DNA of 64,000 nucleotides, from assembly GCA_009780825.1 (NCBI GenBank), contig WQZH01000005.1, positions 62,001 to 126,000 of the forward strand, written 5' to 3'. The notes below the pieces were generated by a model. The model ran no database searches, was not told where the DNA came from, and saw only the letters and a list, made by a program, of their open reading frames with translations. Made by a program: the position numbers and the translations under genes. Shown piece by piece: positions 52,480 to 63,500 of this stretch (positions are counted from its first letter, which is position 1; every line of letters starts with the position of its first letter). Source of the DNA: Desulfobulbus sp. (lineage in GTDB: Bacteria > Desulfobacterota > Desulfobulbia > Desulfobulbales > Desulfobulbaceae).

Positions 52480-52698
52480 TGCATCCCGAAAGAGCAAGGA
52501 TGGCAGTGGGCGGGCCTTGCTGTTGGGAATGGGGTGGATGAATCCGCAGCGCAACGATGCGATTGGGCAGGGGAGTCATTTTTTTGGCAGAAGGAGATCG
52601 TGCCGCTGACGGGATACAACAGGATATATGACGAAACGGGATATATGGCAATAAGCGACTGTCGGCCAGCGGGCCGGCATGGTTGGGAGAGAGAAGCG

Positions 52699-54471
52699 AT
52701 GGCTACGGAAGAGAGACAACGACTGATCGAGTCCTTTATCGATACATCCCTGAAGATGCTCCATTGGTTGCATCCCTTTGTCCATGCCCTGGTCGCACAG
52801 CCGGATCGCGAGGATATCCTGCCCGATATCACCGACTCTGGATTCCGGCTGTTTCATTTCGTCGAGGGAACCGGCGCAGTTTTGGGGTTCAATCATTTGG
52901 TGGCACCGGTGGCGGCCATGGAATATCTTCTCGATCGGATACGATCGGGTATTCTGCCGCTGACCCTGCCCCGCATCGCCCTGTTGGCCGAGGTCTGCAA
53001 CTATCTTGAACGTGGATTGGTGCTGGTACGGGAGGAACAGTCCGACAAAAGCTTGGCGGATGCCGCCTCCGGGCTGGCCGCGGTTATTCGGCAAGACGTG
53101 TTTCAGGAGCAGGGCGCTTTCTTGGACGACGGGTCGGATTCCGGGATTCCCGAAGACGCACGGGAGGTTTTTTTCTGGGAAACGGCGAAATTGATAGATG
53201 TGGCGGAGCAGGAGTGCACCCTGTGGGATTGCATTTTGCTTGATTCGGACCGGGTGGCGGGGCTGTCCCGGGTGCTGAACCGGTTGAAGCAGTGTTTCGC
53301 CCTGTACGATTTTCACGATCCAGAGCGGATATGCCTGGCCATGTCCTCGACCATCAATCGGTTCGTGCAAGGCGAGCATTTTCAGCATCTATATCCGGAA
53401 CAGGTATTTTTGCGCTGCATCGACGCGCTCCGGGCGGCGCTTGTCGCCTTTCCATCAAATAACAATTTGGTGATGCCTGATGTCGAGCAGCACTTGGCGG
53501 ATTTACAGGGGTTGATGCGCCGGCCCATCGGCGCCTTGCTGGTCGAGGCGGGGCTGGTAGATGTGACCGAGGTTGATCGAGCCCTGGCGATACAGCGTTC
53601 CGTTCCGGACGGGCGCTTGCGCTTTTTGGGCGAGGTGCTGGTTGACATGGGGAAGGTGACGCCCGAGCAGGTCGAGGGCGCGCTTCGCGAACAGCACGAC
53701 CAACGGACGCTGATCTCCAAAGTGGTTCGTGACCCCAGGGGACTGACGGTGCCGGAAGCTCCGTTGGCTGTGGCCGTCGATGGCCGCAGGCTCGAACGGA
53801 TGTATGTGTTGCTCGAACGGCTGCTGGCTTTGCAGCCTCAGGGCGAATATCTGACGCACCTGAACGAACTGTGGGAGGTCGTGCTCACCTGCCGTCTCGA
53901 CATGCTCGCCTCTTTGGCCAGCCGGTTGCACAGGGTGGTGCACGATCTCGCTGTCGAAAGCGGCAAGCGGGTCTATTTCACGATTGATGGGATCGGGATA
54001 CTCCAGGAAACAGACGAAGCGGCTGTTCTGGTCGACTCCCTGTGTTATCTGCTGCGCAACAGTGTCGAACATGGACTAGAAACCGTCGAGGACAGAACGC
54101 ATTCAGGGAAAAGGAGAACCGGCAGGTTGCATCTTCTGGCCCTGCGTCAGGACAAGGAGATATGGATCAGTGTCGAGGATGACGGCCGGGGGTTTGATGA
54201 CGAGCGGGTGAAAAACCTTCTTGCCGGGCGTGGACTGATGACCGCCGATGGCTTTGGCAGGTTGACCAACCGGGAGCGTATTGCCCTCCTGTTCAAGGAG
54301 CCGCCTCATCCACCGGTGCAAGGTGACGGCCAGGGGCAGGGATTGGTCGCCGTGCAGAAAATTTTGCAGGATATCGGCGGCACGATGCATGTGACCACCC
54401 GTTCGGGCAAGGGAACTTGTGTGACTCTGCGGGTTCCGCGGGGCGGTCTTGAGGCGCCGCAGAGAAAATGA
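52699..54471 (+). CDS. CheA-like histidine kinase with HPt-like N-terminus and MshEN-like module
   Basis: ATG 52699 follows GGGAGAGAG. The 590-residue soluble protein starts with an HPt/P1-like domain (about 10-110) whose His53 (FRLFHFVEGTGAVLGF) sits at the phospho-acceptor position of CheA. A second helical segment covers about 155-255. Residues 277-332 resemble the N-terminal module of GspE/MshE ATPases, a c-di-GMP-binding type in MshE (GALLVEAGLVDVTEVDRALA, then FLGEVLVDMGKVT). A CheA-type catalytic domain (about 400-582) has LLRNSVEHGLE, VEDDGRGFDDERV and GQGLVAVQKIL. No CheW-binding P5 domain or receiver is present. It diverges from the flagellar block and precedes a CheC/CheX-like gene. 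Confidence 0.75.
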   Translation: MATEERQRLIESFIDTSLKMLHWLHPFVHALVAQPDREDILPDITDSGFRLFHFVEGTGAVLGFNHLVAPVAAMEYLLDRIRSGILPLTLPRIALLAEVCNYLERGLVLVREEQSDKSLADAASGLAAVIRQDVFQEQGAFLDDGSDSGIPEDAREVFFWETAKLIDVAEQECTLWDCILLDSDRVAGLSRVLNRLKQCFALYDFHDPERICLAMSSTINRFVQGEHFQHLYPEQVFLRCIDALRAALVAFPSNNNLVMPDVEQHLADLQGLMRRPIGALLVEAGLVDVTEVDRALAIQRSVPDGRLRFLGEVLVDMGKVTPEQVEGALREQHDQRTLISKVVRDPRGLTVPEAPLAVAVDGRRLERMYVLLERLLALQPQGEYLTHLNELWEVVLTCRLDMLASLASRLHRVVHDLAVESGKRVYFTIDGIGILQETDEAAVLVDSLCYLLRNSVEHGLETVEDRTHSGKRRTGRLHLLALRQDKEIWISVEDDGRGFDDERVKNLLAGRGLMTADGFGRLTNRERIALLFKEPPHPPVQGDGQGQGLVAVQKILQDIGGTMHVTTRSGKGTCVTLRVPRGGLEAPQRK

Positions 54472-54651
54472 TGGGTTAACTCTTTGCATCCAGACGCCGA
54501 AATAGAATCAAGGGAAAATGGTGCACGGCTTGCAAGGATGATTGCCGTGAAGATCAGGCCGGCGGCGCCAACGGTGGCCGCCTTTTGCTGGGCAATGAGT
54601 CCGGGATCTGTATAGATTTTGGGTAACTGATATATTTCGTTTGTTTCCGCG

Positions 54652-56559
54652 ATGGATACCAGAGAACACTTTGACACCATATTGCTCGCCTGCTGTGATC
54701 GGATGCAGGAGGAGATCGCAGCCCTGCTCGGCAAGCCGTTCACCTTGGGAGAGCCGGAATTCCGTCACACGGGCAAGAAGGAACTGTTTGCCGGGCTTGC
54801 AAAGAAGGAAATTCTGATCCATGCCGGCCTGGAAGGAGAGGTGGAGGGGAGCGGATGTGTGCTGGTGGGCATCGATGATGCCATCCGCCTCGGCGGCACG
54901 CTCATCATGCTGCCTGAACCGGAACTGGAACGCATTCTTTTCGCCCAGGACTACCTTGAGGAGCTGCAGGACGCGAACAAAGAAATCGCCAAGGTGATCT
55001 GCGGTGCCTCTGCAGCGGTTTTGGCAGAGCAATTTCCCCAGAAACTGCGGCTGGTCAGCGGAGAACAGGAAATCGTTGTGCCCGCCGAGGTGGAGATCGG
55101 CTCAGATCAACCGATCCCTGATATCCCATATTATTTGATGACCGCATCCATACAACTCAACGGCCGCGGATTGGGACCGTTGCGCTTGGTGTTGCCCGCG
55201 ATTCCCTTGCTGGGGCTTGAGCATTCCGGCAGCCCGGACTCCGCCTTGGCAGCCGTTGCGGTGCAGCCGGCCGGATTGAGTCGTGATGACGTATCAGCGG
55301 ACGCGACAGGCATGACTCCGGCATCCCCGGCGGTGTTGCCAGGGGAAAGCGATGTGTTTCAGCGGTCGCCCGATGGGCAAGGCCCCTCAGCCCTTGCTTC
55401 CAGGGAACGGGCCACGCGCAGGCAGGAGGTGGTCCGGCGGAAGGCTCTGGTTGATCACCTGCTGCAAAGCGGCATGGCCAAAATGGGTGAAGAGTTGCGG
55501 GTCCTGTTTACCGGCGTCCTTAAAGTTGTGTTTGAGGGCAACAGGGCGGTCACCAGGGAAGCGTTCCTCGATCAGATCGGCGAAAGACAGATGATGACCC
55601 GGATGGCAATCAAGGGGGACAGCCAGGGCGAGGCATATCTGTTGGTCGAAGACAAAACAGCGATCTATCTGGGAGGCACGCTGATCATGCGGCCGGAGGT
55701 CGACCTGGAGGAAATGATCCGGAATGGCGCGATGGACGACGACATCCATGACGCCTACGGGGAGGTGGCCGATATCGTTTCCGCTGTCTACTCGACGCTC
55801 TTCGAAGAACAGCAGCATGGGGCATTCGGGCTGGTCAAGAAATCGACAGAGTTGATTGTTCCGGCCAGGATCAATCTGGATGCGAACAATATTTTCCCTG
55901 ATCATACTTATTATCTCGCCGCCGGCCAGATCCGATACGACGGCCGCGACCTGGGGCGGTTGCAGTTCTTGATTCCTGCGGGTCTGTTTACCCTGGAAGA
56001 TTTGCCGCTCCTGGACGGGACGCCGGGCGACGGGGTCGAGGATGAGGATGAGGGGCAGGTCGCCGCGCCTGCCGGTGAACTGGCCCCTGCCGCTGGCGCG
56101 GGTGGCGCAGAACAAGCCGACCTGGCCGCCGCGTCCGCCGGTGAACCGGCCTCTGCCGCTCCCGGCCGCTTACGAGAACAACCGGAGAGGAATCCCGATA
56201 TCCTGCTGTTTACCGACGACGACGGCGAGGCGGACCGCATCGCCGAACTGCTTGAGACAATGGGATATTTCTGCCGCGTCCTCCATTTCAAGGAACCGGT
56301 TCACAGCGTCATGCATCCGAACATACGGATCGTCTTTCTGGTCATGCGGGAGGCCAGCGAGTTGGGATTCGGGGTGGCGATTAAAATCAGCAGTGCGGGT
56401 TTGTCGGTCCCCTTGGTGGTCGCCAGCCCGGCCTGGACCAGAACCCTGGTGCTCAAGGCTGTGCGCTACGGCGCCTGCGATATCCTGATCACCCCGGCTT
56501 CGCCCGAGGACATCCGGGAGAAGATCGCGGCGGTGAACATGGTGGGAAATACCGTCTGA
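54652..56559 (+). CDS. Tandem CheC/CheX-like protein with C-terminal pseudo-receiver
   Basis: The 635-residue soluble protein contains two related blocks, about 5-190 and 265-455. Each has GGTLIM(L/R)PE followed by a helix and then VPA-x-(V/I) and YYL...GR-LG-L...PA. The fold type resembles CheC/CheX/FliM middle domains. The phosphatase signature E-x2-N is not kept: the helices read KEIAKVI and GEVADIV. An Ala/Gly/Pro linker (460-525) leads to a receiver-like domain (528-635) that keeps TDDD but lacks the acceptor Asp (FLVMRE) and the Lys. It lies 180 bases after the CheA-like gene and its stop abuts the convergent activator gene stop (TGATCA). The start has no clear ribosome-binding site. 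Confidence 0.68.
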   Translation: MDTREHFDTILLACCDRMQEEIAALLGKPFTLGEPEFRHTGKKELFAGLAKKEILIHAGLEGEVEGSGCVLVGIDDAIRLGGTLIMLPEPELERILFAQDYLEELQDANKEIAKVICGASAAVLAEQFPQKLRLVSGEQEIVVPAEVEIGSDQPIPDIPYYLMTASIQLNGRGLGPLRLVLPAIPLLGLEHSGSPDSALAAVAVQPAGLSRDDVSADATGMTPASPAVLPGESDVFQRSPDGQGPSALASRERATRRQEVVRRKALVDHLLQSGMAKMGEELRVLFTGVLKVVFEGNRAVTREAFLDQIGERQMMTRMAIKGDSQGEAYLLVEDKTAIYLGGTLIMRPEVDLEEMIRNGAMDDDIHDAYGEVADIVSAVYSTLFEEQQHGAFGLVKKSTELIVPARINLDANNIFPDHTYYLAAGQIRYDGRDLGRLQFLIPAGLFTLEDLPLLDGTPGDGVEDEDEGQVAAPAGELAPAAGAGGAEQADLAAASAGEPASAAPGRLREQPERNPDILLFTDDDGEADRIAELLETMGYFCRVLHFKEPVHSVMHPNIRIVFLVMREASELGFGVAIKISSAGLSVPLVVASPAWTRTLVLKAVRYGACDILITPASPEDIREKIAAVNMVGNTV

Positions 56560-57654
56560 TCAGCCCTGCTCTCCTTCTTCGTCTTCCATACAGCTGGCGA
56601 GCAGTTCTTTTTTTTTGATTTTTTCCAGCAAGGTGGTTCGCTTCAGGTTCAGGAGGCGGGCAGCCTCCTTTTTGTTGCCCTGGGTCAGCTTCAGAGCCTG
56701 AACGATTAACTGGGTTTCGAAATCGTTCACCAGCGCATTGAAATCAATGCCGTGTTCTGGCCATGTTTCGTCGGCGACAGGAGGAGGAGCGGGTGAAAAC
56801 AGGAGGAGCTGCTCGGGCCGACTGACGTCACTCAGCCGCTGGTACGATGTTTCTTCTCCGCTCGCCATGCCAAGAGAGGTGCCGTTGCGGTATTTTTCCG
56901 GCAGATCGTGATATCGCACCATCGTGCCGCCATGCAGGATGGTCATGTGTTGCACCAGATTTTCCAGCTCCCGGACATTGCCCCGCCAGGGGAAGGTGGT
57001 GAGCGCTTGTATAGCGGCCTGGTTAAATCCCAATAATCCATTTTTTCTTGTCTTGCCAAGGAGTTGGACGAAATACTCGATGAGTATGGGAATATCGTCC
57101 ACCCGCTCCCGCAGGGGCGGGATAGACAGGGGAATCACGTTGAGCCGGTAATACAAATCTTCGCGGAACTTGCCTTCGGTCACCATCTGTTCCAGATTGC
57201 AGTGGGTGGCGGCAATGACCCGGACATTCACCGGAATCGGCTTCAGGCCGCCGACCGGCTCGAATTCCCGTTCCTGAAGCACGCGCAGCAGCTTTGCCTG
57301 GAGCACAGGCTTCATGTCGCCAATCTCGTCAAGAAAGAGAGAACCGCCGTTGGCGTATTCGATCCGGCCGATCTTCGGACCCGTGGCCCCGGTAAATGCT
57401 CCTTTGGTATGGCCGAACAGTTCGCTTTCCAGGAGATCGTCCGGGATTGCGGCGCAGTTGACTGGAACGAAATGGTGCTCGCGCCTAGGGCTGTGCGCAT
57501 GAATCGCCTTTGCCACCAGTTCCTTGCCGGTTCCTGATTCCCCCTGGATGAGCACGGTGCCCCCGTCGTCCTCGGCAAGTTTGCCGATCAGTCTGAACAG
57601 CCGGTGCATGACAGGGCTTCGGCCTATGATTCCGTAAAATTCGTCAGAGGGCAT
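56560..57654 (-). CDS. Sigma-54-dependent transcriptional activator without sensory domain (FleQ/FlgR-like role)
   Basis: The 364-residue product begins directly with the AAA+ domain: Walker [15 protein letters not shown] sigma-54 contact loop, Walker [13 protein letters not shown] and the [13 protein letters not shown] segment. A Fis-type HTH ([17 protein letters not shown]) is at the end. No receiver, GAF or PAS domain precedes it. ATG 57654 overlaps the upstream CNB gene by 11 bases; the in-frame TTG at 57681 is less likely. Given the flanking flagellar block with sigma-54-like sites, it is a good candidate for the flagellar master activator; this is inferred from position. Confidence 0.85.
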
Positions 57655-58159
57655 GGCGTTCGTCCGGGAGCTGGTCTGCAAGTTGACTGGTGGTCAGGCG
57701 CATGTTGAGGCTCAGCAGGCGCATGATGATTTTCAGGAAAGCGACTCCCAGGACTGGATACTCCTCGGTGAGCACTTCGAATTTTTTTTTGGTCAAGATT
57801 ATGACAATTGAAGGCTGGCGCGCCACCACGGTGGCGGAACGCGGCGACTGGTCGATAAGCGACATTTCGCCAATGGTATTGCCCTTGCCGAGGCGGGCAA
57901 TGACCCGATGATCACCATCCTTGGTGGATGTTTTCAAGACATCGAGCAGTCCACGGACGACAAAGCACATGAAGTCTCCCTGGTCACCCTCGGCAAAGAG
58001 GTGTTCGCCTCGCCTGATCTCGGCAAAATGCATGTGGCGTGTCAGGGTGTCGAGGTCATCGGATCGGAAGGCATCGAACAGGGGAAGAGTGAGCATGATC
58101 TCCCTTGTTTTTTTTTCGCTTTCCGAAAGACTCTGTTCAGGCACAACTTTTTTTTTCAT
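57644..58159 (-). CDS. Stand-alone cyclic nucleotide-binding domain protein
   Basis: The 171-residue product has one CNB domain (about 25-140) with the phosphate-binding cassette [15 protein letters not shown], keeping both the Glu and the Arg that contact cyclic nucleotide. There is no HTH as in CRP and no kinase or channel part. It overlaps the start of the sigma-54 activator by 11 bases. Since the activator has no sensory domain, this protein may supply its input. That is inference from gene coupling. Confidence 0.8.
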
Positions 58160-59237: not shown

Positions 59238-60158
59238 TCAGCACATGCAAACCTGGTTTTTGCCGTTACGCTTTGCCTCATACATGGCTATATCCACCCG
59301 CTGGATATAGCTATCCGGCGCTTCCCCCGCCCGGTAGAGGCCGCATCCCATGCTCGCGGTAAATTGCGGCACACCATCCGCCACATGGCCTTCTATGGTT
59401 TCCCGGAGCTTCTCGGCAATGACCAAGGCCTTCCACAGCTCGCAGGCTGGCAGGAGAATGATAAACTCTTCCCCACCGTAACGCGCCACGATATCGTCCC
59501 GACGCAGATTGGCGCGCAGTATCCGGCCAAGGGTCCGCAACACTTGATCTCCCGTGATATGGCCCAAGGTGTCGTTGATGACCTTGAAGTCGTCAATATC
59601 AAGCATGATGGCGGAAAGCGGATGGCCTGCGGATTTGCTCTTGCGGATTTGCACCGGTAACGACTCCATGAAGGTGGCTCGATTCAGCACCTTGGTCAGG
59701 CCGTCAAGCTGGGATTTTTCCTTGTAGAGCTCCAGGCTGCGGGTCAAGACACGGTTTTCCAGTAGTTGAGCGCGGGCCTTGCCCAAAATCGCCGACCTCT
59801 CATTGAAGTCATCCTGGAGCAGCCGGATGATGATGACCTGTTCGCAGCCAAAAGTCTGCGCTATGGCGATGAGAGCGGACTCATCCCCGGTTTTGCCTTC
59901 TTCCTGCCAGATACCCGAGGAAAAGACGTCTGTTGCCTGATTGATGAAAAAGTGTTCCACTTCCTCAAAAAAGATCTCCAGCATGTTGGAGTGGTGCCAC
60001 GGTTCCACACAGGGCCCATCTTCGGAAGGAGGGAACAGGTTGTCGTAAAAGCAGGGGGCCTGCCCGAAAAATTCATATTTTTTAACGCCTACACGCCTGA
60101 GCAGGGCAATATCGAGCGCGTGCAGAACCTGTAGGGCGAGATGTTCCTTGGTCTTCAA
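59238..60158 (-). CDS. GGDEF diguanylate cyclase
   Basis: The 306-residue soluble protein has a novel-looking N-terminal input domain (about 1-145, with ATDVFSSGIWQEEGKTGDES) and a GGDEF domain (about 150-306). The active-site motif is GGEEF. An inhibitory I-site RRDD lies exactly 5 residues upstream, so it should make c-di-GMP with product inhibition. It starts inside the GTPase stop (4-nt overlap, ATGA) and is the last gene of the GTPase/OmpA operon. The input domain has no membrane segment. Confidence 0.88.
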   Translation of the reverse strand: MKTKEHLALQVLHALDIALLRRVGVKKYEFFGQAPCFYDNLFPPSEDGPCVEPWHHSNMLEIFFEEVEHFFINQATDVFSSGIWQEEGKTGDESALIAIAQTFGCEQVIIIRLLQDDFNERSAILGKARAQLLENRVLTRSLELYKEKSQLDGLTKVLNRATFMESLPVQIRKSKSAGHPLSAIMLDIDDFKVINDTLGHITGDQVLRTLGRILRANLRRDDIVARYGGEEFIILLPACELWKALVIAEKLRETIEGHVADGVPQFTASMGCGLYRAGEAPDSYIQRVDIAMYEAKRNGKNQVCMC

Positions 60159-60664
60159 ACGTTTCTCCCAACCTTCAGCATTGCTTTGGCCAGGGACTGG
60201 AAGGCCTCTTCCACCGACTGGCCTGTCTTGGCGCTAGTACGGAAAACGGTGATCCCTTCGGCTGCGGTCTGCTGAAGCATATCCTCAGAGATTTCCCATT
60301 GATCCGCCAGGTCATCCTTGTTGATCAAAAGGGCGTTGGGGATCGTGCCCATCTTGCCTAAGACCAGGGCGCGCAGTTCCAACGCCGTGTCCAGGGTTTC
60401 CGCCCGCGTTCCGTCAGCGACAACAAAAAATCCCATAGCCCCGCGAAGATAATTTATATTGACATCTGTAAAAATGTCCCGGCCTTCCATATCCCATAGA
60501 ATCATGCTCACTTCCTGGTCGGCAACAGTGATTATTTTTTTGCTGATCTTTACCCCAATTGTGGAAAGGTATTTGTCGGAAAAAACAGAATGTACATACC
60601 GTTCTACCAGGGATGTTTTGCCCACGGAAAAGGCGCCGAGCATACATATTTTTTTGTTGATCAT
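60155..60664 (-). CDS. Ras/Rab-like small GTPase
   Basis: The 169-residue single-domain GTPase has a complete set of G motifs: G1 GAFSVGKTS, G2 Thr in the STIGVKI loop, G3 WDMEGRD, G4 NKDD and G5 TSAKTG. The G3 box carries Glu where Ras-type GTPases often have Ala-Gly (WDxAG), so intrinsic hydrolysis may depend on a partner. It is of MglA/Rab type rather than translation-type. The upstream gene encodes a protein with a Roadblock-like region, the usual class of partner for such bacterial GTPases. Confidence 0.88.
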   Translation of the reverse strand: MINKKICMLGAFSVGKTSLVERYVHSVFSDKYLSTIGVKISKKIITVADQEVSMILWDMEGRDIFTDVNINYLRGAMGFFVVADGTRAETLDTALELRALVLGKMGTIPNALLINKDDLADQWEISEDMLQQTAAEGITVFRTSAKTGQSVEEAFQSLAKAMLKVGRNV

Positions 60665-60774
60665 GACTCTACGAAAAATTCAGCCCGCATCGGGCGTGTC
60701 CTTAAGAGGTTAGTGGGTACGGATAAACAGGCGCGAGACATTGTTTGGTGTTGGCGGCTCTCTTTAACCGGAAA

Positions 60775-62811
60775 TTATTGCGTGAAAATATCGACCCCAG
60801 AGGTTGCCGGCCGGGCAATATGCACGCGCAATTCAATCCGCCGGCTGGCTTGATCTTCCTTGGGCGCTGACACGGCCTGGCCGCTGGATTTTTCCCCTTT
60901 GGGGTATTGAGAACCCATGCCGTACATGGCGATGGGGATGCTGGAGCCCCTGGCGTACAGCATGGCCGCGACCGTGCGCGCCCTCTCCTGGCTGATCTCG
61001 TAATTCCGTCTTTCCAGTCCTATGGCATCCGCGTGGCCGTAGATGGTCAACGTGAGGACGAATCCCACATCGTTGACGAGTCTTTCCAATTCCACCAACG
61101 TGTCCACCGCCGCTTCAAGCTTGGGCGTATCCGTTGGCACCGGAATAGCCTTCCCTAGAGGAAACTCGATATCCGCGCTTTCAATCGATTGAATCATGGC
61201 GGTAATACGATCCAACAGTGGGTCTTTTACCCCGCTCATATCCACATGCTTGACGCCCGGCAGCGTGCGGGCCGTATCCTTGGCCCCGGCAATCCAGGCC
61301 AGGGGAGCGGTGCCGGTGAACACCAACGTGCCATGGCTGAAACGGATCGTCACGGTTGGCGGCAAGTCGATGGCATTTTCAGCCCTTCTGGCGACAATGG
61401 AAGGATCGTATGAAACATAGGGGATGATTTTAAAGGTAAAGGCATCCGGCTGAAAGCTGTGAGCCCGCAGCACGTCATCCGGCGTCCTCGCCAGATCGTC
61501 CTTGAGGAGCATGACCTCCCAAGGGCTGTCCGCAGCCTGGGTGACATGGGTGAGCATGAATCCCGGCTCATTCCGCAAAAAGCTGAGCCCTTTTTGCATG
61601 AGCGCCACATGGGCCGACTGTTGTTGCCTGAGTTCGCGGGCATAATACTGGAAAGAGCCGATACCCCCGACCAGGATCAGAAGCGCGAACAGCGGCAGGG
61701 CCTTGCCCCACCAGGGAAGGTCTTTTCCTTCATCCCGGTAGCGGGTAATGAGGAAGGGCTCAAGGTGCCGGGCAGCTCCAGCAAAAGGAGCGGTGTCACC
61801 GGAAAAGGATTCCAGGGGGGCGGCGAATTCAATGAGCATGGTTTCCAAGGTAGCGCGCAGACCTTCCCGGAAACCTGTTGGTGGCGTGCCGCGCAGGACA
61901 CAGGCCAGATAGGCCTGAGAATATTTTTCGATGAAAATGGTGAACTCTCCCAGATGCAAAGATTCCAGCTCACCCTCAGAGTTGCTGATAAAGCAGTCAC
62001 GGACGAAATCCTGGATGGCCGTCAGCATGGCCGAAACCATATCCGCGTCTTGCGTTCCCACCCCTTCATTGGTCAGGTGTGAGAGGACCAGCCCGGTCTC
62101 GCTGTGAATGAAAAAAAGCTGTTCAACCCGATAAGCGAGGGTGTGCAGCAGGACGATTTCACTGAATGGCTTGCCCGTGCGCAGGGCCTCCATTCTCCAG
62201 CGCACCCCTTTCCAGGAAAAGGACATTTCCAAGCTCTTGCTGAAACTTTCCAGCATAGACCGGAAGGTTTCAGCAATGGATTTGCGAATGGATGGCCCCA
62301 TGAGGGGAAAGAGAACGCCCACAAAGTCGGATTGATGCCGGTTGAGCGAAGATTTGAGGATGGCATTCACTGTGGGTTCCAGCGCGGTATTCAGGCGGTC
62401 GTCGTCGCCGCGCAGGAGCAGGGCCTCGGCAATTACCTCGCTCACCCGTTTGGCGTTCTGGCGAGGATCATTGAGGCCGTCTTTCAGCCGTTGAATGATG
62501 GTCAGCTCGCGCTGGAACAACAATGCGCGTAACCTGTTGAGCTCCTCGTCATCCGGGAGTTCCGGAAGGTCGCTCCACAGACCGGAAGAGACAGATGGCG
62601 CCTCGCTTACGCGGTCATAAAAAGGCGCTGCCACGTCTTTGGCGGAATAAACGCTGTCTTCTCCCTCCATGGAAGGAGTGTCCGCGGCACCGGTATCCGT
62701 ATCGGGCCGGGAGTCTTCGTCCGTCTGGGCTGCCGGCATGGGACTGGCATGAAGGCTTTCCGCTTCTCTACCCTCTGGAGAGAATGGAGAAGCGTTCACG
62801 GTATCCGTCAT
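60775..62811 (-). CDS. Membrane protein joining a Roadblock-like cytoplasmic region to an OmpA peptidoglycan-binding domain
   Basis: The 678-residue protein has an acidic, disordered N-terminus (1-85) and a helical block (about 90-215). A segment at about 225-335 has a pattern I read as Roadblock/LC7-like (VEQLFFIHSETGLVLSHL, SAMLTAIQDFVRDC, YLACVLRGT). A single transmembrane helix (370-388) leads to a BON-like periplasmic part (about 410-540) and a C-terminal OmpA/MotB domain (about 550-670). The last includes LTIYGHADAIGLERRNYEIS and SRRIELRVHI. It could tie the cytoplasmic GTPase encoded next to it to the cell wall. The Roadblock call is inference from sequence pattern. It is not Pal: it is far larger and has no lipobox. 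Confidence 0.78.
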   Translation of the reverse strand: MTDTVNASPFSPEGREAESLHASPMPAAQTDEDSRPDTDTGAADTPSMEGEDSVYSAKDVAAPFYDRVSEAPSVSSGLWSDLPELPDDEELNRLRALLFQRELTIIQRLKDGLNDPRQNAKRVSEVIAEALLLRGDDDRLNTALEPTVNAILKSSLNRHQSDFVGVLFPLMGPSIRKSIAETFRSMLESFSKSLEMSFSWKGVRWRMEALRTGKPFSEIVLLHTLAYRVEQLFFIHSETGLVLSHLTNEGVGTQDADMVSAMLTAIQDFVRDCFISNSEGELESLHLGEFTIFIEKYSQAYLACVLRGTPPTGFREGLRATLETMLIEFAAPLESFSGDTAPFAGAARHLEPFLITRYRDEGKDLPWWGKALPLFALLILVGGIGSFQYYARELRQQQSAHVALMQKGLSFLRNEPGFMLTHVTQAADSPWEVMLLKDDLARTPDDVLRAHSFQPDAFTFKIIPYVSYDPSIVARRAENAIDLPPTVTIRFSHGTLVFTGTAPLAWIAGAKDTARTLPGVKHVDMSGVKDPLLDRITAMIQSIESADIEFPLGKAIPVPTDTPKLEAAVDTLVELERLVNDVGFVLTLTIYGHADAIGLERRNYEISQERARTVAAMLYARGSSIPIAMYGMGSQYPKGEKSSGQAVSAPKEDQASRRIELRVHIARPATSGVDIFTQ

Positions 62812-63500
62812 TCTGACGACTCGGAGTATTCCTCGCTATTCTCCTCTTCAATCATTTCCGCATCAACGGAGGCAGACGCCGTATCAGTCCATTGACCGCT
62901 CAGCTTCACCGCCATTTCGGTCAACAGACTGGAAATCTGGGAGCGGGTCGCCATATCATGACGGATTTGAGCGGCGGTCTTGGCAAGAATATTCAGTGCA
63001 TCTTTGTACTTTTGCTCCACCTTGTCAGAAAGTCTGGCATTTTCCGACAGCAAGAGTTGCCTCAGTTCCCGTTCCGCGGCGTCCAGTGTCCCGGATAGGG
63101 CCTTGAGTTTCCGCTCCTGTTCCTGCTCCAGTGTGGCCAGGTCGCGCGTTACTTGGGCCAAGCCTTCGCTGCGCTCGCGCTGCTCGTTTTTCAATGCCTC
63201 CTGGCGTTCGGTCTTCTCCATTTTGAAGGCATCCAATCTTTCCCGCTGCTCGTTTTTGAGAGCTGCGCTCCGTTCTTCCTGCTCCTCTCGCAAGCGATGC
63301 AGAAAAGAGGTGGATTCACTTTTCATAAAGCTCTCCAAGGACTCAATACGATTCTTGACAGAATCCCTGAGGTCAGAGAGATTTTGCTGGAAACGTTCTT
63401 CCAAGCGCTGGAACCGGTTTTCCACATCTTTCATCTGGGTGCCTAGCAGCAGTTCGCGGACTTGTTCCATGGAATCCGGCTTGGCGGGAGCCTTACGCAT
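62808..63500 (-). CDS. Hendecad-repeat coiled-coil protein
   Basis: The 230-residue soluble protein starts after a perfect AAGGAGG. It is nearly all coiled coil. Residues about 73-116 contain 11-residue repeats beginning ER (ERSAALKNEQR, ERLDAFKMEKT, ERQEALKNEQR, ERSEGLAQVTR). The C-terminus is very acidic (EEENSEEYSESSE). It is the first gene of the OmpA-GTPase-GGDEF operon, overlapping the OmpA gene by 4 bases. A structural or scaffold role is likely; no known family is recognised. Confidence 0.78.
   Translation of the reverse strand: MRKAPAKPDSMEQVRELLLGTQMKDVENRFQRLEERFQQNLSDLRDSVKNRIESLESFMKSESTSFLHRLREEQEERSAALKNEQRERLDAFKMEKTERQEALKNEQRERSEGLAQVTRDLATLEQEQERKLKALSGTLDAAERELRQLLLSENARLSDKVEQKYKDALNILAKTAAQIRHDMATRSQISSLLTEMAVKLSGQWTDTASASVDAEMIEEENSEEYSESSE

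What the first reader, a model, noticed from the sequence alone, without database searches (positions are those of the whole stretch)
59238..63500. GTPase / Roadblock-OmpA / diguanylate cyclase operon that could couple cytoplasmic GTP state to the cell wall
Four - strand genes, two pairs overlapping by 4 bases, encode a hendecad coiled-coil protein, a transmembrane protein with a cytoplasmic part and a periplasmic OmpA domain, a Ras-like GTPase with all five G motifs, and a GGDEF enzyme with an intact active site and I-site. The sequence shows these domains directly. Established knowledge: Roadblock proteins such as MglB regulate MglA-type GTPases, and OmpA C-terminal domains bind peptidoglycan. 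Inference: residues about 225-335 of the membrane protein are Roadblock-like, so the protein would be a wall-anchored partner of the GTPase, with c-di-GMP as output. I recall similar GTPase/OmpA pairs in other proteobacteria without an assigned function; I cannot check this.
Basis: partly seen in the sequence, partly recalled or inferred. Interest (0 to 1): 0.78.

Follow-up and report, generated by a model that had tools for sequence, protein, structure and literature searches.

The report
Wall-anchored Rab-like GTPase signalling operon
Four neighbouring bacterial genes encode a Rab-like molecular switch, a cell-wall-anchored membrane protein with a predicted longin-type switch-binding domain, a coiled-coil protein and a signal-making enzyme; the gene set was described in 2014 but never studied, and this copy lacks the residue proposed to turn the switch off.

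Summary
Four minus-strand genes (59238-63500) with 4-base overlaps encode a hendecad coiled-coil protein, a membrane protein with a C-terminal OmpA domain, a Rab-like GTPase and a GGDEF enzyme. The arrangement is the Group 1 Rup locus of Wuichet & Søgaard-Andersen 2014 (PMC4316618), which has no experimental function. Of 67 GTPase relatives with enough flanking DNA, 55 keep all four genes in this order. New here: (1) the "unknown domain" of the OmpA protein (residues 226-358) is predicted to have the longin/Roadblock fold, closer to longins (Z about 13) than to MglB (Z about 11), with no sequence similarity to MglB; (2) the outputs' constant N-terminus is predicted PAS-like plus a long helix, attached to at least eight kinds of output domain; (3) the "invariant" glutamine on that helix, proposed in 2014 as a catalytic residue in trans, is absent in the window's clade (Gly here), and the GTPase position equivalent to Ras Gln61, usually Glu, is there Gln, Lys, Arg or Ser (Arg here). 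That linkage is essentially one evolutionary event, so suggestive only. Best reading: an envelope-anchored longin platform sets the GTPase state, which controls c-di-GMP synthesis. No interface could be tested.

The parts
62808..63500 (-). Coiled-coil cytoplasmic protein (230 aa), first gene of the operon
   Evidence: ORF; no Pfam match over cut-off; homologues found upstream of the OmpA gene in 58 of 67 testable loci
63396..63470 (-). Conserved N-terminal motif of the coiled-coil protein (MEQVRELLLGTQMKDVENRFQRLEE)
   Evidence: Gly20 invariant, Arg15, Leu18 and Glu34 nearly invariant in 51 homologues; a similar motif opens the conserved part of the OmpA protein (weak)
63156..63287 (-). Four hendecad (11-residue) coiled-coil repeats, residues 72-115
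   Evidence: Autocorrelation peak at lag 11
60775..62811 (-). 678-aa membrane protein: cytoplasmic part, one TM helix, C-terminal OmpA domain
   Evidence: ORF, Pfam, hydropathy, relatives in 59 of 67 testable loci
61738..62136 (-). Longin/Roadblock-fold domain, residues 226-358, predicted GTPase platform
   Evidence: AlphaFold2, Foldseek, VIA-align 2
61645..61713 (-). Predicted transmembrane helix, residues about 367-389
   Evidence: Hydropathy maximum 1.76 at residues 369-387; long helix 367-403 in the model
60877..61053 (-). OmpA peptidoglycan-binding domain, residues 587-645
   Evidence: PF00691 E 1.6e-7; 37 of 41 family members scanned match
60155..60664 (-). Rab-like small GTPase (169 aa), Rup family
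   Evidence: PF00071 E 9.4e-29; best PDB sequence match Rab23, E 2.2e-22
60479..60481 (-). Codon of Arg62, the position equivalent to the catalytic Gln61 of Ras
   Evidence: Alignment of GTPase homologues
59238..60158 (-). Output protein (306 aa): PAS-like N-terminus, signalling helix, GGDEF domain; TTG start
59706..60149 (-). PAS-like domain with C-terminal helix, residues 4-151
   Evidence: AlphaFold2 mean pLDDT 88.6; PAS/LOV matches (moderate)
59781..59783 (-). Codon of Gly126, where most outputs of this kind have the conserved glutamine
59253..59711 (-). GGDEF diguanylate cyclase domain with GGEEF site and RxxD I-site
   Evidence: PF00990 E 4e-42, motif positions

Best explanation
The locus is a Group 1 Rup-type signalling unit, here of a variant kind. 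The 678-aa protein sits in the inner membrane; its OmpA domain holds peptidoglycan in the periplasm and its cytoplasmic longin-fold domain is a docking and regulatory platform for the Rab-like GTPase. The coiled-coil protein probably assembles with it. The GTP/GDP state of the GTPase is read by the PAS-like N-terminus and signalling helix of the output protein, which here switches a diguanylate cyclase, so an envelope condition would set c-di-GMP. Shown: the gene set, its conservation, the domains and motifs, and exchange of output domains behind a constant N-terminus. Predicted by modelling: longin fold and PAS fold. Inferred: every protein contact, the direction of signalling and the nature of the envelope signal.
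For: 55 of 67 GTPase relatives with enough flank keep coiled-coil, longin-OmpA, GTPase and output in this order and strand. Longin-domain and GTPase distances correlate at r 0.89 over 64 loci, 0 of 500 permutations as high, so they are inherited together. Outputs vary (HK, GGDEF, response regulator, class III cyclase, HD, SpoIIE, sigma-54 AAA+, EAL) while the N-terminus is kept, with at least 22 class changes on the GTPase tree by a crude motif classification; that pattern fits a constant input and an exchangeable output. Fold matches are largely to domains that bind or regulate small GTPases: TRAPP, Fuzzy-Inturned, Mon1-Ccz1, Ragulator, MglB, and the GTPase's own nearest PDB sequence is Rab23, whose GEF is Inturned-Fuzzy (title of PMC6864590). 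The genome has 9 GGDEF and 9 PilZ matches, so c-di-GMP signalling exists there.
Against: No GTPase-longin or GTPase-output interface was modelled or tested. Longin folds also occur in proteins that are not GTPase regulators (Sec22b, Ykt6, AP sigma). The PAS match is moderate (Z 7.3, below the level at which chance arrangement is excluded). Twelve of 67 loci lack at least one part in the DNA held. Four of 41 longin proteins scanned lack the OmpA Pfam match. With Arg62 and Gly126 this copy has no identified catalytic glutamine, so it might not cycle at all.
Confidence: 0.6

Rival explanations
1. The output acts on the GTPase rather than the reverse: the PAS-like N-terminus is the GAP and supplies a catalytic glutamine in trans, as proposed in 2014, so the output terminates its own signal.
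For: The helix glutamine is present in 58 of 91 pairs, including all but one of the type B outputs, while the GTPases mostly lack Gln61. Where it is lost (33 pairs) the GTPase has Gln in 19, against 1 of 58 elsewhere. Proposed in PMC4316618.
Against: It cannot hold for the window copy, which has Gly126 and Arg62. The losses lie almost all in one clade of 32, so the association is close to a single event. Vibrio loci and L139 pair Gln with Lys, L083 has both glutamines, and L066 has neither Gln yet keeps Glu.
Confidence: 0.3
2. The GTPase of the window clade is a slow or non-hydrolysing switch, set by expression or by exchange alone; the OmpA protein only localises the complex.
For: Arg62 in the window and its genus relative; Lys or Ser in several clade members; no glutamine in the cognate output of these.
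Against: The sister subclade has a cis glutamine (18 rows), which suggests that hydrolysis matters. All other G motifs are intact.
Confidence: 0.25
3. The four genes are only co-transcribed neighbours and do not form one pathway.
For: No contact has been shown; terminator-like and promoter-like sites in the region are no more frequent than in shuffles.
Against: The order is kept across loci labelled Proteobacteria, Acidobacteria, Myxococcales and Deltaproteobacteria, rhizobial plasmids and Nostoc.
Confidence: 0.05

Closest known systems
Group 1 Rup systems (Wuichet & Sogaard-Andersen 2014, PMC4316618)
   Same: Rup GTPase without the G3 glutamine, coiled-coil gene, gene for unknown domain-TM-OmpA, output gene with a conserved N-terminal region
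   Different: The described output is typically a DGC/PDE fusion or histidine kinase with an invariant N-terminal glutamine; here a single GGDEF enzyme with Gly at that place. The paper gives no fold for the unknown domain; here it is predicted longin-like.
MglA/MglB (Myxococcus, Thermus)
   Same: Small GTPase with a partner of the longin/Roadblock fold superfamily; MglB structures match at Z about 10-11
   Different: MglB has no detectable sequence similarity and no TM or OmpA part; the host genome has a separate MglA/MglB pair
Actinobacterial conservons (CvnA-D)
   Same: Four-gene unit joining a small GTPase, a Roadblock protein and a signalling enzyme (PMC4316618)
   Different: MglA-type GTPase, separate Roadblock (MglB-type) protein, no OmpA anchor described
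Eukaryotic Rab GEFs with longin domains (TRAPP, Mon1-Ccz1, Inturned-Fuzzy)
   Same: Rab-type GTPase beside a longin-fold partner; these are among the best fold matches
   Different: No sequence similarity shown; the eukaryotic GEFs are multi-subunit or heterodimeric; GEF activity here untested

Membership tests
Group 1 Rup system | rup GTPase with eukaryote-like G1-G5 motifs but no glutamine in G3 | tested here: met
   WDMEGRD, all other motifs present
Group 1 Rup system | Neighbouring gene for a cytoplasmic coiled-coil protein | tested here: met
   62808-63500, hendecad repeats, no TM segment
Group 1 Rup system | Neighbouring gene for conserved unknown domain, often followed by TM helix and OmpA domain | tested here: met
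   60775-62811
Group 1 Rup system | Fourth gene for a signal-transduction output module with conserved N-terminal region | tested here: met
   GGDEF protein with the shared N-terminal region
Group 1 Rup system | Invariant glutamine in the N-terminal region of the output | tested here: not met
   Gly126 in the window; R, N or G throughout most of its clade. Filed as a variant for this reason; which residue the 2014 logo shows was inferred from our alignments.
Group 1 Rup system | Placement with the 2014 Group 1 sequences in a tree | not tested
   Their sequences were not in hand; a Nostoc plasmid locus with the same four genes was found
Roadblock/LC7 (MglB) family | Match to the Robl_LC7 profile or to MglB by profile comparison | tested here: not met
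   No Pfam match at E 0.1 in the window protein or at 0.01 in 41 family members; hhalign with MglB set E 0.47
Roadblock/LC7 (MglB) family | Roadblock-type fold | tested here: inconclusive
   Roadblock structures match at Z 10-11, longins at up to 13 over a longer range; predicted model only
Longin domain | Longin fold: two strands, helix, three strands, two C-terminal helices | tested here: met
   Predicted model with that element order; best matches longins Z 11-13 over 115-131 residues. Prediction, not a solved structure.
Longin-type Rab GEF | Stimulates nucleotide exchange on its GTPase | not testable with these tools
   Needs biochemistry
Peptidoglycan-binding OmpA domain | OmpA C-terminal domain with the Asp and Arg of the diaminopimelate site | tested here: met
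   PF00691, GHAD at 592 and ISQERAR at 606; the role of the two residues is established knowledge; binding itself not tested
Active diguanylate cyclase | Intact GG(D/E)EF site | tested here: met
   GGEEF at 228, RRDD at 219; activity not tested

The most novel reading that the evidence does not exclude
Bacteria have a Rab-like GTPase controlled by a wall-anchored longin-domain protein: a prokaryotic counterpart of the Rab/longin-GEF modules of eukaryotes, with a plug-in output. In one lineage the catalytic glutamine moved from the partner protein back into the GTPase.
Probability: 0.25. Interest if true: 0.8.

Novelty: new variant of a known kind. Interest (0 to 1): 0.5.

Why it matters
A predicted longin domain in the wall-anchored partner gives a concrete candidate for the missing regulator of these GTPases, and a natural set of pairs with and without the proposed trans-glutamine makes the 2014 catalytic hypothesis directly testable. 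If the longin domain acts on the GTPase, bacteria would have a membrane-anchored Rab-like/longin switch, relevant to the origin of eukaryotic Rab regulation and to how cells sense their envelope.

Tried and rejected
Roadblock by sequence: Pfam and hhalign against MglB-type proteins of the same order gave nothing. Rosetta-stone fusions of GTPase with longin domain or output: none among the ORFs of 85 loci. A phylogeny-corrected test of glutamine covariation: at most 5 independent pairs, which cannot reach significance. Shared N-terminal motif between coiled-coil and OmpA proteins: hhalign E 0.04 and best-site position near the expected start in 21 of 41, but low absolute scores, so kept as a lead only. 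Homology of type A and type B output N-termini: hhalign E 0.008 but probability 5%, so only the motif Q-K-A-R/N-D/E is relied on. Viral contigs gave no relative of the OmpA protein. A first regex for the glutamine column misread many rows and was replaced by HMM alignment. Promoter and terminator scans were at the shuffled level. The organism could not be named.

Full report
What is there. The four ORFs are at the stated places on the - strand: coiled-coil protein 62808-63500, 678-aa membrane protein 60775-62811, GTPase 60155-60664 and GGDEF protein 59238-60158. The two overlaps are ATGA and TTGA; the GGDEF gene begins with TTG. Pfam gives Ras (9.4e-29), OmpA (1.6e-7) and GGDEF (4e-42). Four hendecad repeats, a single hydrophobic segment at about 369-387, GHAD and ISQERAR in the OmpA domain, GGEEF and an RxxD I-site are in the sequence.

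What it is. A 2014 survey (PMC4316618) describes Group 1 Rup GTPases, encoded with a coiled-coil protein, a protein with an unknown conserved domain often followed by a membrane helix and OmpA domain, and an output protein whose N-terminal region has an invariant glutamine; the authors state that no Rup member had been experimentally characterised and suggest that a glutamine may be supplied in trans. The window matches this description gene for gene. I found no later experimental work in the papers searched, which are open-licence papers only.

Neighbourhood survey. Of 67 GTPases with at least 4 kb upstream and 0.6 kb downstream, 59 have the longin-OmpA gene, 58 the coiled-coil gene, 64 an output with the conserved N-terminus, and 55 all four. 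The profiles were made from members of the same set, so these counts measure consistency, not sensitivity. Outputs carry HK, GGDEF, receiver, class III cyclase, HD, SpoIIE, sigma-54 AAA+ and EAL domains. L100 has two outputs in tandem. In the window's own genus only 2 of 24 genomes searched carry the full-length OmpA protein, and 10 of 297 genomes in the phylum carry the GTPase, so the system is patchy.

The unknown domain. AlphaFold2 on residues 88-404 with 61 sequences gave mean pLDDT 78; most of the domain itself lies between about 87 and 97, with a weaker stretch at model residues 151-200, and the stretch before the domain is poor. The best Foldseek matches are Mon1-Ccz1, AP sigma, TRAPP, Ragulator, an Asgard Roadblock and MglB. 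VIA-align 2 puts longins first (TRAPP chain 2j3t_D Z 13.0, Fuzzy-Inturned 12.6, Sec22b 12.4) and Roadblock structures at about 10-11, aligned over a shorter range that leaves out the last helix. I call it longin-like within the longin/Roadblock superfamily. Sequence comparison with MglB-type proteins is negative. Fold does not prove function: Sec22b and Ykt6 longins are SNARE parts.

The output N-terminus. The model (151 residues, pLDDT 88.6) has the PAS order of strands and helices and a long C-terminal helix. PAS and LOV structures lead both comparisons, but at moderate scores (Foldseek E 0.005 at best; Z 7.3 at best). The conserved glutamine of other outputs falls in that helix; in the window it is Gly126, model residue 125.

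The glutamine. In 91 GTPase/output pairs, 58 outputs keep the glutamine; their GTPases have Glu or Asp at the Gln61-equivalent position in 49. In the 33 without it the GTPase has Gln 19, Lys 8, Arg 3, Ser 1, Glu 2 (one duplicate removed). On a GTPase tree built without the tested columns, all but two of the 33 fall into one clade of 32 rows (support 99/93), so this is close to one event; the independent-pairs test cannot decide. What stands is that the glutamine is not invariant, and that the window copy has it neither in cis nor at this place in trans.

Mechanism. Because the coiled-coil, longin-OmpA and GTPase genes stay together while the output domain changes, the simplest model is input (wall-anchored longin protein) to switch (GTPase) to output (PAS-like helix and enzyme). 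The genome has other GGDEF and PilZ proteins, so a change in c-di-GMP could be read. All contacts and the signal are inferred.

Verdict. A real, conserved, previously described but unstudied system; the window holds a variant that departs from the published description in one tested feature. The longin-like prediction and the natural glutamine-less clade are the useful additions.

Noticed in passing
G000 C27:25306-26275 (L121): The same genome carries a separate canonical MglA/MglB gene pair, so two kinds of small-GTPase system coexist.
   Followed up: partly
window 52534-56559: Two adjacent + strand genes: a protein with Hpt and HATPase domains and a protein with a weak CheX match, a chemosensory-like pair near the Rup locus.
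   Followed up: no
window 56560-58159: Sigma-54 activator gene overlapping a cyclic-nucleotide-binding-domain gene, both - strand, downstream of the Rup operon.
   Followed up: no
L029 5848-8913 and L031 5848-8913: The rhizobial plasmid OmpA proteins (1021 aa) repeat a periplasmic segment of about 135 residues four times between TM and OmpA domain; most relatives are much shorter there.
   Followed up: no
L100 5458-8064: Two different outputs (class III cyclase and histidine kinase) in tandem behind one GTPase, one with each type of N-terminus.
   Followed up: partly
window 63396-63470 and 62467-62541: The coiled-coil protein and the conserved part of the OmpA protein begin with similar LR-x-LL motifs, possibly a shared docking segment; weak statistics.
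   Followed up: partly
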